64,000 nt of DNA from Evansella cellulosilytica DSM 2522 (GTDB lineage Bacteria; Bacillota; Bacilli; Bacillales; Salisediminibacteriaceae), in the NCBI RefSeq assembly GCF_000177235.2, contig NC_014829.1:682001-746000 (forward strand), in the 5' to 3' direction. Both the position numbers and the translations under genes were made by a program. Below, in pieces: positions 26,397 through 31,809 of this stretch. The notes below the pieces were generated by a model, which was given only the letters and a program-made list of their open reading frames with translations, searched no databases and was not told the DNA's origin. How positions within the stretch are numbered: position 1 is the first letter of the stretch; each line of letters starts with the position of its first letter.

Positions 26397-26410
26397 TGAA
26401 AGCGCTTTAT
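26397..26410. promoter_or_regulatory. cre-like site (CcpA) upstream of abfA
   Basis: TGAAAGCGCTTTAT matches the palindromic cre TGWAARCGYTWWCA at 12 of 14 bases. It sits just upstream of the abfA ribosome binding site, where CcpA binding would block transcription when preferred sugars are available. Confidence 0.6.
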
Positions 26411-26598
26411 AGCTTTATATCAATTTTAACAATAGATGGTGTGATTTTCTATATTATTCCTAAATATCATCAACTAACAAACATGAATTGTCCAAGTTGT
26501 GAATAGCAATAAGATAGGGAGAATAGATAAAGGAATTTTTCACTTTAATGATACTTTATCTAAATGATTTCGGATTCTTGTATATAGGGGGAAATCTA

Positions 26599-28425
26599 AT
26601 GGTCGAAGCAATTTTGAAGCTGTTTATTAATGATCAGCAAGTAGAATCAATTTTATCAAATTCGTTCATTGAACTTATTTTCATGGTGCTGTTTGTAACC
26701 TTTGTTGTTACAGTTTTCGTTCATTTTATTTTGTATAGTAGGTTAAGAAGAATTCGCCATCACTTATATGCTACGAATTCCTTGAATATTGAACCATTAA
26801 GTTCGTTTAAGAAAGACTTTGATGAAAAGCAGAAGGAGGAGTCTGTAAAGGTAGAGACGTTTGTTGAGCAGAAGTTTTCTAGCTGGCGTGTATTAAATGT
26901 TCCTGTTGTTAGTTTAATAAAGATGGTACAAATGACGATTTCTATTTTTATATTAGTAGGTGTGTTAGGAACGTTTATAGGGCTTGCAATGTCATTAGGA
27001 AGCATAGACGGTACGGGAGACCAACTAGTAGAAAATGTAGCAGCCGTACTTGCAGGACTTGATGTCGCGTTTTATACGAGTATTGTCGGTATGGGATTCT
27101 CTTTAATTATGACAGTGATGACGAGGGTTGCTAATACTGAATACATGTTAACAGACATTATGTTAAAAATGGAGTCGTATTTACAGGAAAACGAAGAGGA
27201 CGCGATGTCTCGCTTAATTGATGTATCAAAAACAATCAATGGCTCTATCGTAGAGCTGCGTGAAACGAACCAAGCTTCATTATCAAACATTGAAAAGGCT
27301 TTTCATGGATTCCAAGAATATACAGTAGGTTTACAGCAATCTGCAAAAGATTTAGCGAAATTTAATGAAGGATTATCCTCCAATCTAAAAGACTTCCATG
27401 TTCTTTTTGCAAATGTAAAGAAGGTAACTGACAAATTAGATGGATCTATAACAAATCTCAATAAAAACTTTGATTCGTTATTCTCGTATTTTAATAAAAT
27501 GGATAAGAGGAACGAGAGGATGACGACGGCATTTCAGGATACGTATAAAAAAATTGAAGATTTAACTTCTTCGCAGATGGAAACTTTAAAGCATTTTGAA
27601 GGGGCAGTTGAGGAGTGGAAGGAATATATTTCATCTATTGCTGATAGACAAGATACGATTCATACATCGTTTGAGAGGGTTGTAGCCCAAAGTGAAACAC
27701 TCACAAATATGATGAAGGAAAACAACAAACAGTTTAAAGGTATATTCGGTAATGATGTGAGTGCGAAGCTTGGTGGAATTAATACTTACTTAAGCGAGCT
27801 CAAGGGTGATTTTAATAAACTTGGGAATTCGGTTGTTCGTCTTCCAGATGCACTAGAAACGATCAATATGGCACAAGCGGAGTTTAGAACATTATTCTCT
27901 GATCGTTTTGAAGAGCTAAAGCAATTTAATAGAGACTTCAATAACCATTTGAAAACACATGCAGCTGAGTCAGAAAGCTTTGAAAGACACTTATCTGATG
28001 CGTCAAAATCTCATGAGCAAATTGCGATGAAAAACAATCAAATGCTTGCAGAAATTAATCGTGTCACACAGCAAATTACTGACTCCTTCCAACAGAGAGA
28101 AAGTCAAATAGAATCAAGCGTAGGTGTATTAAAGGATACTTTATCTAGGTATGTGAACAATCTAGAAGGGACTTTAGGCGATCGGTTAGATAAGGTAGGG
28201 AGAAGTATAGGTGATTTTGTTGTAGATATGAATGATTCTATTAAAAAAGAGTTTAAGCAAATTGGAGATATTTCTGAGGAAAATCAGCAGAGAACAGCTC
28301 GTCAAACACAGCAAGTATTGAGCGACTTGAATCAGGAGTTTCAGAATTTAAATCGCCTTCTTCAATCATATACCCAAGACATGGTAAGACCACAAAATAG
28401 GATGAGGGTTGGCAGCAATGATTAA
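26599..28425 (+). CDS. ZorA-like MotA/TolQ/ExbB proton-channel protein with long coiled-coil tail
   Basis: A 608-residue protein. Three spans (about 22-46, 112-134, 147-176) give the TolQ/ExbB/ZorA topology; the family signature is GVLGTFIGLAMSL (121-133) and LAGLDVAFYTSIVGMGFSL. After residue 180 a predicted helical, coiled-coil cytoplasmic tail runs to the C-terminus (about 430 residues), far longer than MotA, TolQ or ExbB tails but like ZorA. ATG 26599 follows a GGGGGAAA stretch; the longer frame from 26548 has no site. Its stop overlaps the ZorB-like start by 8 nt. No flagellar, Tol or TonB genes are near. Confidence 0.85.
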   Translation: MVEAILKLFINDQQVESILSNSFIELIFMVLFVTFVVTVFVHFILYSRLRRIRHHLYATNSLNIEPLSSFKKDFDEKQKEESVKVETFVEQKFSSWRVLNVPVVSLIKMVQMTISIFILVGVLGTFIGLAMSLGSIDGTGDQLVENVAAVLAGLDVAFYTSIVGMGFSLIMTVMTRVANTEYMLTDIMLKMESYLQENEEDAMSRLIDVSKTINGSIVELRETNQASLSNIEKAFHGFQEYTVGLQQSAKDLAKFNEGLSSNLKDFHVLFANVKKVTDKLDGSITNLNKNFDSLFSYFNKMDKRNERMTTAFQDTYKKIEDLTSSQMETLKHFEGAVEEWKEYISSIADRQDTIHTSFERVVAQSETLTNMMKENNKQFKGIFGNDVSAKLGGINTYLSELKGDFNKLGNSVVRLPDALETINMAQAEFRTLFSDRFEELKQFNRDFNNHLKTHAAESESFERHLSDASKSHEQIAMKNNQMLAEINRVTQQITDSFQQRESQIESSVGVLKDTLSRYVNNLEGTLGDRLDKVGRSIGDFVVDMNDSIKKEFKQIGDISEENQQRTARQTQQVLSDLNQEFQNLNRLLQSYTQDMVRPQNRMRVGSND

Positions 28426-29116
28426 TAATAAGTACAAAAGATTATTTAAAGGCGAACAAGATGAAGGGCATTTTTGGCCATCCTTCACAGATTTACTTAC
28501 GGCGATTCTCCTTTGCTTTGTACTTATTTTTATCGTCATGATGGTCATAAAGTCCTTCCAAATTGAAGAGATGAAGCGAACGATAGATCAAATTATGGGT
28601 GTAAGAGTGAACATTATTGAAGATTTAAATGAAGAGTTTAGTGATTCTAGTTTAGCAGTTGAAATTGATGAAAACACCGGAGCGCTCATATTTAACACCG
28701 ATATTTTATTTGAGTTTGATGAAGCAGAACTGAAGCCTGAGGGATTTGAATTTCTCGATGAGTTTGTCCCAACTTATTTAGAAGTATTGTTGGAAGGAGG
28801 CTATGATGAATACATTTCAGAAATTATTATAGAGGGTCATGCTGATAGAACAGGTGGTTATTTGTATAATTTAGAGCTTTCTCAAGAAAGGGCTTTTAGT
28901 GTCGCAGAGCATATATTAAGTGATCGTTTTTCCGACCCTACTGTTCAAGAACCTTTAAAGGAAAAGTTAACGGTTAATGGAAGGTCCTATACTGATGGTA
29001 GAACGGATGAGGAAGGAAATTATAGTCATGAGGACTCCCGAAGGGTTGAATTTAAATTTCGCTTGAGAGATGAAGAAATATTGGAAAAAACGAGAGAATT
29101 ATTAGAAGGACACTAA
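28418..29116 (+). CDS. ZorB-like OmpA/MotB-domain stator protein
   Basis: A 232-residue protein: short cytoplasmic N-terminus, one span with the ion-carrying Asp25 in FWPSFTDLLTAILL (the MotB/ZorB position), a linker, then an OmpA-like peptidoglycan-binding domain with IIIEGHADRTGG, NLELSQERA and the later RRVEFKF. The DxxR-type ligand residues (Asp143, Arg158, Arg208/209) are kept, so wall anchoring is expected. Paired with the ZorA-like gene by an 8-nt overlap. No ZorC, D, E, F or G-like gene follows; a terminator ends the unit. Confidence 0.85.
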   Translation: MINNKYKRLFKGEQDEGHFWPSFTDLLTAILLCFVLIFIVMMVIKSFQIEEMKRTIDQIMGVRVNIIEDLNEEFSDSSLAVEIDENTGALIFNTDILFEFDEAELKPEGFEFLDEFVPTYLEVLLEGGYDEYISEIIIEGHADRTGGYLYNLELSQERAFSVAEHILSDRFSDPTVQEPLKEKLTVNGRSYTDGRTDEEGNYSHEDSRRVEFKFRLRDEEILEKTRELLEGH

Positions 29117-29120
29117 TACA

Positions 29121-29176
29121 AATAAGAGGGACTGAAAAAGTTGATATGTACTTTTGCAGGCCCTCTTATTTTTTAT
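29121..29176 (+). terminator. Terminator of the ZorAB-like operon
   Basis: AATAAGAGGG (29121-29130) pairs with CCCTCTTATT (29161-29170); inside, CTGAAAAAGT/ACTTTTGCAG extends the stem; T-run follows. The inner arm belongs to the CACTGAAAAAGT hairpin module. Confidence 0.85.
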
Positions 29177-29246
29177 CTTTGAGAACAAATCGCGGGAGAG
29201 TGGAGCTATTGTCAGGACACTCACAGCCCCCTTTTTCAAAATGAAT

Positions 29247-30564: not shown

Positions 30565-31809
30565 TTGATAGCTGAAAGTATGCAAGTACGATTACAGTCA
30601 CTTGGGAAGATGATGATTACAGCATTGGTTACTACGCTTCTAGCAATTGCATTTTTTGCATTTACCGCTGAAAGTGCATCAGCTCATGGATATGTGGAAA
30701 ATAGTCGTGCGCATTTATGTGCGGAAGGTGTTAATACAGATTGTGGAAGAGTAATATATGAGCCCTTTAGTGTTGAAGGGCGCGGTGATTTTCCTCATGA
30801 AGGTGTACCTGATGGTCAATTAGCTAGTGCAGGATTATTCCTTGAGCTAGATGAACAATCGTATGACCGTTGGGAAAAGGTAGATATGCAGGGGGGCCCA
30901 TTTACTTTTGAATGGCACATACATGCAAATCACAGCACGAATACGTGGGATTATTATATTACGAGAGAAGGTTGGAATCCGAATGAACCATTAGCACGAG
31001 CAGATTTGGAGCTTTTCTGCACGTATCGTGACTATGGTGCACTTCCGCCTGATCATGTAACAAACGATTGTGTTATACCAAATGATCGTGATGGTTATCA
31101 TGTGATTTTAGCAGTATGGGACATTGATGATACGATGAATGCATTCTATCAGGCGATAGATGTCAACTTAAGCATCAACCCATCTGAGCCTTCAACTCCA
31201 GAACCAGGATTCCCAGGAGACCCTGATCGCTTTGGAGAATATGATTATTGGAATACAATTAAGGCATATACTGAAGGAGATATTGTGATACACAATGGAC
31301 AATTGTGGGAAGCAAGATGGTATTCACGAAATGATGAGCCAGGTACGAATCCGAATGGTCCTTGGCTTCTTCTAGGAGACTACGAACCAAGTGATCCAGG
31401 AGAGCCAAGTGACCCAGGAGAACCGAGTGACCCAGGAGAACCAAGTGACCCAGGAGAACCGAGTGACCCAGGAGAACCAAGTGATCCAGGAGAGCCAAGT
31501 GATCCAGGAGAGCCAAGTGACCCAGGAGAACCGAGTGACCCAGGAGAACCAAGTGACCCAGGAGAACCGAGTGACCCAGGAGAACCAAGTGATCCAGGAG
31601 AGCCAAGTGATCCAGGGGAGCCAAGTGATCCAGGAGAACCAAGTGACCCAGGGGAACCAAGTGATCCTGGAGAGTACCCTGCTTGGGATCCAGATACGAT
31701 ATATACAAATGAAATTGTTTATCATAATGGGCAACTATGGCAAGCGAAGTGGTGGACTCGAAACCAAGAACCTGGTGACCCGTATGGCCCTTGGGAGCCA
31801 TTAAATTAG
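30565..31809 (+). CDS. Secreted AA10 lytic polysaccharide monooxygenase with two chitin-binding modules
   Basis: A 414-residue secreted copper enzyme that oxidatively cleaves chitin. The signal peptide ends ESASA at residue 40, so mature protein begins with His41, first histidine of the copper brace; the second is His123 (ANHSTNTWDYY). RDGYHVILAVWDIDDT and NAFYQAIDVNL match the CBP21 core. Domains: AA10 (41-208), CBM5/12 (about 220-270), linker of 16 EPSDPG hexapeptides, second CBM5/12 (about 370-414), both with the HNGQLW.A.W motif. Start is TTG 30565, 8 nt after AGGAGG, giving an unusually long signal peptide. Confidence 0.93.
   Translation: MIAESMQVRLQSLGKMMITALVTTLLAIAFFAFTAESASAHGYVENSRAHLCAEGVNTDCGRVIYEPFSVEGRGDFPHEGVPDGQLASAGLFLELDEQSYDRWEKVDMQGGPFTFEWHIHANHSTNTWDYYITREGWNPNEPLARADLELFCTYRDYGALPPDHVTNDCVIPNDRDGYHVILAVWDIDDTMNAFYQAIDVNLSINPSEPSTPEPGFPGDPDRFGEYDYWNTIKAYTEGDIVIHNGQLWEARWYSRNDEPGTNPNGPWLLLGDYEPSDPGEPSDPGEPSDPGEPSDPGEPSDPGEPSDPGEPSDPGEPSDPGEPSDPGEPSDPGEPSDPGEPSDPGEPSDPGEPSDPGEPSDPGEPSDPGEYPAWDPDTIYTNEIVYHNGQLWQAKWWTRNQEPGDPYGPWEPLN
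31384..31674 (+). repeat. 16 tandem 18-bp repeats encoding EPSDPG
   Basis: The repeat units fall into three main variants by synonymous bases. Their order is A-B-C-B-C-A repeated exactly twice (31387-31494 and 31495-31602), then four diverged units. This is a 108-bp higher-order duplication within the linker. Confidence 0.9.

What the first reader, a model, noticed from the sequence alone, without database searches (positions are those of the whole stretch)
26599..29176. Stand-alone ZorA/ZorB-like rotary motor operon without Zorya effectors
Seen: an 8-nt-overlapping pair with its own promoter space and terminator. The first product has TolQ/ExbB/ZorA three-span topology plus a roughly 430-residue helical tail; the second has a single span with Asp25 in FTDLLT and an intact OmpA-like peptidoglycan site. 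Known: Zorya anti-phage systems pair ZorAB with ZorCD, ZorE or ZorFG, and the ZorA tail is thought to carry the signal inward. Here the neighbours are a GH51 gene and a flavodoxin, with no nuclease, helicase or other effector. Inference: either an orphan defence sensor working with a distant effector, or a wall-anchored ion-driven motor with another job such as envelope-stress sensing.
Basis: partly seen in the sequence, partly recalled or inferred. Interest (0 to 1): 0.78.

Follow-up and report, generated by a model that had tools for sequence, protein, structure and literature searches.

The report
Stand-alone ZorAB-type motor without effectors
Salt- and alkali-loving bacilli carry a conserved two-gene, cell-wall-anchored ion-driven motor of the kind that powers Zorya phage defence, but it has no defence effector beside it and its own private control sequence, so it probably does a different, still unknown job.

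Summary
In detail: zorA-like (26599-28425, 608 aa) and zorB-like (28418-29116, 232 aa), 8-nt overlap, own leader, terminator hairpin, GH51 and flavodoxin neighbours. At least 46 other loci, mainly from alkaliphilic/halophilic Bacillaceae, carry an ortholog (ZorB 68-84% identical). No third gene is conserved beside the pair. The own genome has no ZorC or ZorE match and only generic SNF2 helicases. In trees the pair lies inside the ZorB radiation but outside every sampled effector-bearing Zorya, with flagellar MotB separate. Full zorABCD operons occur in relatives and are another lineage; one genome has both.

New here: (1) a signature, WP[ST]F[TA]D, around the ion-carrying Asp in effector-less ZorB, unlike intact Zorya; (2) a Thr / Thr-Ser / Phe ion site that suggests Na+ coupling; (3) a private ~40-bp upstream element, CATGATTTGTCC-N7-GAATAGC, in all 45 scorable leaders, once per genome and only at zorA; (4) strong purifying selection on core, rod and ZorB (dN/dS about 0.01-0.10).

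Best reading: a dedicated wall-anchored, probably Na+-driven 5:2 motor with a cytoplasmic rod, working without Zorya effectors. Its output is unknown; an orphan defence sensor is not excluded.

The parts
26482..26507 (+). Private conserved upstream element CATGAATTGTCC-N7-GAATAGC (promoter or operator)
   Evidence: Core of a ~40-bp element found upstream of all 45 scorable orthologous zorA genes; GAATA invariant, fixed 7-nt spacer; one site per genome, only at zorA; absent from the other ZorA leaders tested
26599..28425 (+). zorA-like gene, 608 aa
   Evidence: PADLOC ZorA1 3.5e-16, Pfam MotA_ExbB 5.6e-7 above cut-off; start agrees in 45 aligned orthologs; intact in nearly all
26899..27129 (+). 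ZorA membrane core, second and third membrane helices (about aa 101-177), with T125, T160 and S161 of the ion site
   Evidence: T125, T160 and S161 invariant in 45/45 orthologs and in the other stand-alone classes
27139..28422 (+). ZorA cytoplasmic helical rod, aa 181-608; conserved patch at aa 241-262 (YTxGLQ..A.DL..FN.GL..N)
   Evidence: AlphaFold2 helices 203-279, 305-383, 415-594, low confidence; 35 of 45 orthologs are 607-609 aa and conservation peaks at aa 241-260; tail dN/dS 0.02-0.07
28418..29116 (+). zorB-like gene, 232 aa
   Evidence: PADLOC ZorB1 1.2e-74; five best fold matches are ZorB chains; 68-84% identical orthologs in 46 loci
28475..28492 (+). WPSFTD signature with ion-carrying Asp25
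   Evidence: W, P, F and D invariant in 45/45 orthologs (S22 43/45, T24 44/45); W-P-S-F-[TA]-D in the other Bacilli stand-alone pairs, not in the Zorya references
28685..29065 (+). OmpA-like peptidoglycan-binding domain of ZorB
   Evidence: PF00691 2.3e-10; H141, D143, L154, R158, R209, R215 conserved
29120..29178 (+). Rho-independent terminator
   Evidence: Fold -23.3 kcal/mol followed by a T run

Best explanation
A dedicated, stand-alone 5:2 ion motor of ZorAB type that is no longer (or never was) coupled to Zorya effectors. Inferred from homology to solved ZorAB: two ZorB chains sit in a ring of five ZorA chains, and the ZorB OmpA-like domain grips peptidoglycan. Ions, probably Na+, pass Asp25 of ZorB against Thr125, Thr160 and Ser161 of ZorA and turn the ZorA ring together with its ~430-residue cytoplasmic coiled-coil rod relative to the wall. 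The rod carries wall state or torque inward to a partner encoded elsewhere, most likely as a wall-load or wall-damage transducer for cells that live on a Na+ gradient at high salt or pH. Shown: the operon, the lineage, the absence of local Zorya effectors, the ion and wall-binding residues, the purifying selection and the private upstream element. Inferred: the 5:2 assembly, rotation, Na+ use and the output.
For: Bicistron in 47/47 loci with no third conserved gene. No ZorC or ZorE match in the own genome; ZorC occurs only in the three relatives with a full operon, plus one marginal hit. Clade of own + class-2 pairs 97/97, inside Zorya ZorB and apart from MotB 100/99 (concatenated 98). Signature WPSFTD and T/TS ion site fixed in all Bacilli stand-alone pairs with rare exceptions; the same T / polar-T / F pattern is in the genome's MotP/PomA-like stator (GTLIGL, LLTTLYG, FSD) while H+-type MotA-like stators have A/A/Y. 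Private element in 45/45 scorable leaders, unique per genome. dN/dS about 0.01-0.10. Few defence genes nearby. No match above 60% on plasmids (best 33%) or phages (one, 35%), none confirmed in viral contigs. PG binding, ion site and tail are all needed in tested Zorya (PMC11890865).
Against: No phenotype or partner is known. Distribution is patchy between genera (present in 8 of 9 sampled Evansella genomes, in six of nine of genus g3, absent from others). Some supported conflicts with GyrB imply horizontal transfer. Variable genomic position also fits a mobile defence gene. Na+ use rests on residue analogy only. A ZorAB motor needing no Zorya effector has no precedent in the papers read.
Confidence: 0.5

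Rival explanations
1. Orphan defence sensor: the pair senses envelope damage by phage and recruits an effector encoded in trans, as ZorAB recruits ZorCD or ZorE.
For: Closest relatives are Zorya ZorAB; residues needed for PG binding and ion flux in Zorya are kept (PMC11890865); patchy distribution, varied loci and some horizontal transfer.
Against: No ZorC or ZorE match in the own genome; ZorD-like hits match the SNF2 helicase region only. Few defence genes among 128 neighbours. Not on the plasmids or phages searched. Texcoconibacillus keeps this pair alongside a complete Zorya I, so the two are not simply interchangeable.
Confidence: 0.27
2. Flagellar or motility stator variant.
For: 5:2 motor family; the ion site resembles the Na+ MotP/PomA type.
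Against: ZorB lies outside MotB with 100/99 support. ZorA has three membrane helices and a 430-aa rod. No motility gene recurs beside the pair. The genome has its own MotA/MotB-type stator pair.
Confidence: 0.04
3. Decaying remnant of a Zorya operon that lost zorCD.
For: Full zorABCD operons occur in related genomes.
Against: dN/dS about 0.01-0.10 in core, tail and ZorB; nearly all copies intact with constant length; conserved private element; separate clade and signature from intact Zorya I.
Confidence: 0.03
4. Motor for a Gram-positive wall process, for example driving a wall enzyme or wall remodelling at high salt or pH, with the rod acting on a cytoskeletal or divisome partner rather than signalling.
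For: Wall anchor and motor fixed; rod length nearly constant; record titles are mainly alkaliphilic or halophilic genera.
Against: No wall-enzyme neighbour recurs (two VanY-type carboxypeptidases among 128).
Confidence: 0.16

Closest known systems
Zorya ZorAB core (types I, II, III; PDB 8QYD, 8VVN, 8VVI)
   Same: ZorA with MotA/ExbB core and long helical tail, ZorB with one span, ion-carrying Asp and OmpA-like PG domain; ZorB best fold matches 8VVN/8QYD/8VVI; the pair lies inside the Zorya ZorB tree
   Different: No zorC/D/E beside it; WPSFTD instead of the Zorya motifs such as W[MIV]S[YF][SAT]D; scores far below NCBIfam ZorA/ZorB cut-offs (35.6 of 190, 81.3 of 400 bits); private upstream element; chromosomal
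Bacilli Zorya type I operons (loci L079, L080, L081, L121-L123)
   Same: ZorB 39-44% identical, ZorA of similar size
   Different: Followed by zorC and zorD; ZorB motif W.SY[ST]D; separate lineage
Flagellar stators MotAB / MotPS / PomAB
   Same: Ion-site pattern: Thr in the first pore helix, Thr-Ser/Thr in the second, Phe two before the Asp as in the Na+ type
   Different: Four-span MotA without rod; separate MotB clade 100/99
TolQR / ExbBD
   Same: Three-span A subunit, 5:2 motors; weak ZorA fold matches
   Different: ZorB carries an OmpA-like domain and none of the top 50 ZorB fold hits is TolR or ExbD; Gram-positive host without outer membrane

Membership tests
ZorAB motor core | ZorA: MotA/ExbB core plus long helical cytoplasmic tail | tested here: met
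   PADLOC ZorA1 3.5e-16, MotA_ExbB above cut-off, tail ~430 aa predicted helical
ZorAB motor core | ZorB: single span with Asp and OmpA-like PG-binding domain | tested here: met
   Asp25 and PG-site residues conserved; ZorB1 1.2e-74; five best fold hits are ZorB chains
ZorAB motor core | 5:2 assembly and ion-driven rotation | not testable with these tools
   Inferred from homology only
Zorya type I | zorC (EH signature) and zorD (SNF2/Mrr) in the operon or genome | tested here: not met
   Absent at all 47 loci apart from one distant generic SNF2 helicase; no ZorC match in the own genome; ZorD query finds SNF2 helicase regions only
Zorya type II | zorE nickase | tested here: not met
   None next to the pairs; no match in the own genome with one E. 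coli ZorE as query, which lacked a positive control
Zorya type III | zorF (DUF3348) and zorG (DUF2894) | tested here: inconclusive
   Not searched as families in the genome; no recurring third gene beside the pair
Zorya (any type) | Curated NCBIfam ZorA/ZorB score cut-offs | tested here: not met
   35.6 of 190 and 81.3 of 400 bits
Zorya (any type) | Anti-phage activity | not testable with these tools
   Needs plating assays
Flagellar MotAB stator | B subunit inside the MotB clade | tested here: not met
   MotB separate with 100/99 support
TolQR/ExbBD | Linkage to Tol/Ton genes and TolR/ExbD-type periplasmic domain | tested here: not met
   No recurring neighbour; OmpA-like domain. TolR/ExbD sequences were not in the trees

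The most novel reading that the evidence does not exclude
A new class of bacterial 5:2 rotary motor: a stand-alone, probably Na+-driven, wall-anchored ZorAB-type motor with a cytoplasmic rod and a non-defence envelope role in Gram-positive bacteria, from which, or beside which, Zorya defence arose by adding effectors.
Probability: 0.42. Interest if true: 0.82.

Novelty: new variant of a known kind. Interest (0 to 1): 0.62.

Why it matters
Zorya is read as a flagellar-type motor turned into a defence module. A conserved lineage of the same motor without effectors is the missing comparison: it lets one ask what ZorAB does alone, whether the motor or the defence came first, and what the ZorA rod transmits. 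PADLOC models score the pair strongly, and PADLOC also has relaxed classes that need only two co-localised genes (PMC8565338), so such genomes may be listed as carrying partial Zorya; the WP[ST]F[TA]D motif and the upstream element offer a way to tell the two apart. The private promoter-like element gives a direct handle on when the motor is made.

Tried and rejected
Micro-ORF in the conserved element (ATG AAT TGT CCA AGT TGT GAA TAG = MNCPSCE*): rejected, since orthologs carry in-frame stops (L055, L066, L073) or lose the stop (L068) and no Shine-Dalgarno sequence was seen. Sigma-A: GAATA is invariant but no TATAAT-like hexamer is; sigma-H (GAAT core, from memory): -35 and spacing do not fit; Spo0A box (from memory): the conserved C does not fit. 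RNA family: no credible Rfam match. Conserved third gene: none. Effectors in trans: no ZorC or ZorE match, ZorD query gives helicase-domain hits only. Mobile origin: no close relative on plasmids, phages or viral contigs. Purely vertical inheritance: only partly, Spearman 0.33 against GyrB with supported conflicts. One origin for all effector-less pairs: AU test does not reject it (p 0.24) but the free tree puts class 3 outside Zorya. ZorA AlphaFold2 model too weak (pLDDT 58) to use alone. Prior literature on effector-less ZorAB: none found in the library searched; the Nature paper on E. coli ZorAB did not appear in the results.

Full report
Observation. The window holds an intact two-gene operon on the + strand. 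ORF 26599-28425 (608 aa) and ORF 28418-29116 (232 aa) overlap by 8 nt. The leader is about 240 nt, and a terminator hairpin (-23.3 kcal/mol, followed by a T run) closes the operon at 29120-29178. Neighbours are a divergent GH51-type arabinofuranosidase (PF06964) and a convergent flavodoxin (PF12724), neither with a PADLOC match. The genome is one 4,681,672-base contig, which fits Evansella (Bacillus) cellulosilytica; that name is from memory.

Identity. ZorB scores PADLOC ZorB1 1.2e-74 and ZorA scores ZorA1 3.5e-16, but both fall far below NCBIfam's Zorya cut-offs. The ZorB model (pLDDT 78.6) has five ZorB chains (8VVN, 8QYD, 8VVI) as its best solved matches, ahead of PA0833, OmpA and MotS. 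The ZorA model is weak (pLDDT 57.9) but its best hit is ZorA of 8VVN, E = 0.005.

Conservation without effectors. A scan of one genome per species found 46 loci with ZorB 68-84% identical, mainly in genera known as alkaliphilic or halophilic (Evansella, Salipaludibacillus, Halalkalibacter, Anaerobacillus, Alkalihalobacterium, Lentibacillus, Ornithinibacillus, Oceanobacillus, Aquibacillus and others). In all 47 including the window the pair stands as a bicistron with no third conserved gene; apart from close relatives the neighbours differ. None of 974 ORFs within 10 kb resembles ZorC or ZorE, and one generic SNF2 helicase several kb away resembles the ZorD helicase region. Of 128 nearest neighbours, PADLOC matches at E <= 1e-10 are isolated single proteins, among them JetA/JetB of Wadjet, and no Pfam family recurs in more than three. 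ZorC occurs in three of 60 relatives, exactly those with a full zorABCD operon, plus one marginal hit in a longer ORF, and not in the own genome. ZorE gave no match in the own genome, and ZorD hits there cover the SNF2 helicase region only. Texcoconibacillus (G011) carries both this pair and a complete Zorya I (the genome handle and the named record agree in contig length and position).

Other lineages. Bacilli hold four kinds of ZorAB-like locus: complete Zorya I operons (L079, L080, L081, L121-L124, and L126 without zorD); this class; a second stand-alone class (L082, L083, L125); and a third, more distant one (L084-L086, L127-L132), which in L084-L086 sits between sigK and the yrhC-mccB-mccA-mtnN region (gene names by my reading). 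One stand-alone-looking pair with FWPTFTD was found outside the class Bacilli (L224); its downstream neighbour resembles a TrpB-like enzyme by my reading. ZorB trees rooted on MotB place own + second class as one clade (97/97) within the Zorya ZorB radiation (96/90), with the third class outside and MotB separate (100/99). A concatenated tree agrees (98), and the AU test does not reject a single origin of all effector-less pairs (p 0.24).

Signature residues. All Bacilli stand-alone ZorB tested have W-P-S-F-[TA]-D at the ion Asp, with rare exceptions at S22 and T24 (L224 has W-P-T-F-T-D); the intact Zorya references have a different residue in place of Pro, and mostly Tyr, Met or Val in place of Phe (one type I, L136, keeps Phe). 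ZorA T125, T160 and S161 are invariant in all stand-alone classes. Among the stators collected as outgroup, three MotA-type rows have Ala at the positions of both T125 and T160, while the genome's own MotP/PomA-like stator has Thr/Thr and Phe two before the Asp. The stand-alone motors follow the second pattern, so Na+ coupling is inferred. Mariano et al. (PMC11890865) saw Na+ on Ser/Thr in a type I ZorAB and showed that PG binding, the Asp and the tail are all needed for defence. Residue 155 differs by class: Asp here (45/45), His in class 2, Ser in class 3, Lys in type II/III Zorya and mixed in type I.

Rod. In 35 of 45 orthologs ZorA is 607-609 aa long. A patch at aa 241-260 (consensus YTxGLQQSAKDLAKFNEGL) is as conserved as the membrane core. 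dN/dS for close pairs is 0.03-0.10 in the core, 0.02-0.07 in the tail and 0.01-0.03 in ZorB.

Private upstream element. Every one of 45 scorable leaders holds A-NN-CATGATTTGTCC-N7-GAATAGCWATAAANAAAG 57-261 bp before zorA, with GAATA invariant and the spacer fixed; shuffled leaders reach at best 13 of 19 matches, the level of the weakest real site, and 41 of 45 real sites score 15 or more. In the seven Evansella genomes where a site was found at zorA it matches with at most one mismatch, and no other site in those genomes matches so well. In 397 genomes of the order, 29 sites match with at most one mismatch: 27 sit directly upstream of zorA and two are chance one-mismatch hits, while the reversed control gives one. 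The element is absent from the other ZorA leaders tested. I could not assign it to a sigma factor or regulator.

Evolution. Within Evansella 8 of 9 genomes including the own one have the pair. The ZorAB tree follows genera roughly (Spearman 0.33 with GyrB) but has supported conflicts, for instance G003/G004 grouping with Salipaludibacillus, so some horizontal transfer has occurred. There is no match above 60% identity on plasmids or phages (best 33-35%) and none confirmed in viral contigs.

Interpretation. The parts for a wall-anchored ion motor with a cytoplasmic rod are present and under strong selection; the Zorya effectors are not. I think it most likely (about 0.5) that this is a dedicated envelope motor or transducer with its own control, and less likely (about 0.27) an orphan defence sensor with an effector elsewhere. 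Assembly, rotation, ion type and output are inferred. It works like ZorAB; it is not a Zorya system by effector content or curated score.

Noticed in passing
26397-26409: TGAAAGCGCTTTA, a near-perfect catabolite-control (cre) site by memory, in the leader of the divergent GH51 gene.
   Followed up: no
30565-31809: LPMO (AA10) with CBM5/12 modules joined by a long, nearly perfect GEPSDP tandem repeat linker; the repeat also opens long spurious reading frames in other frames.
   Followed up: partly
L084:7499-9726, L085:7061-9285, L086:7452-9727: A third stand-alone ZorAB-like class (ZorA ~510-540 aa) at a conserved locus between sigK and yrhC/mccB/mccA/mtnN, suggesting a long-settled chromosomal gene.
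   Followed up: partly
L140:356-9374: Prevotella plasmid ZorAB-like pair followed by a 273-aa protein and an FtsK-like translocase, with another FtsK-like gene two genes upstream; possibly an undescribed ZorAB-associated effector set.
   Followed up: no
L126:6921-10605: zorABC without zorD in which ZorB has lost the ion-carrying Asp (VSHSVHW), perhaps a decaying Zorya or a motor-dead variant.
   Followed up: no
zorA codon 155 (27061-27063) across classes: Class-specific residue in the third membrane helix: Asp here, His in class 2, Ser in class 3, Lys in type II/III Zorya.
   Followed up: partly
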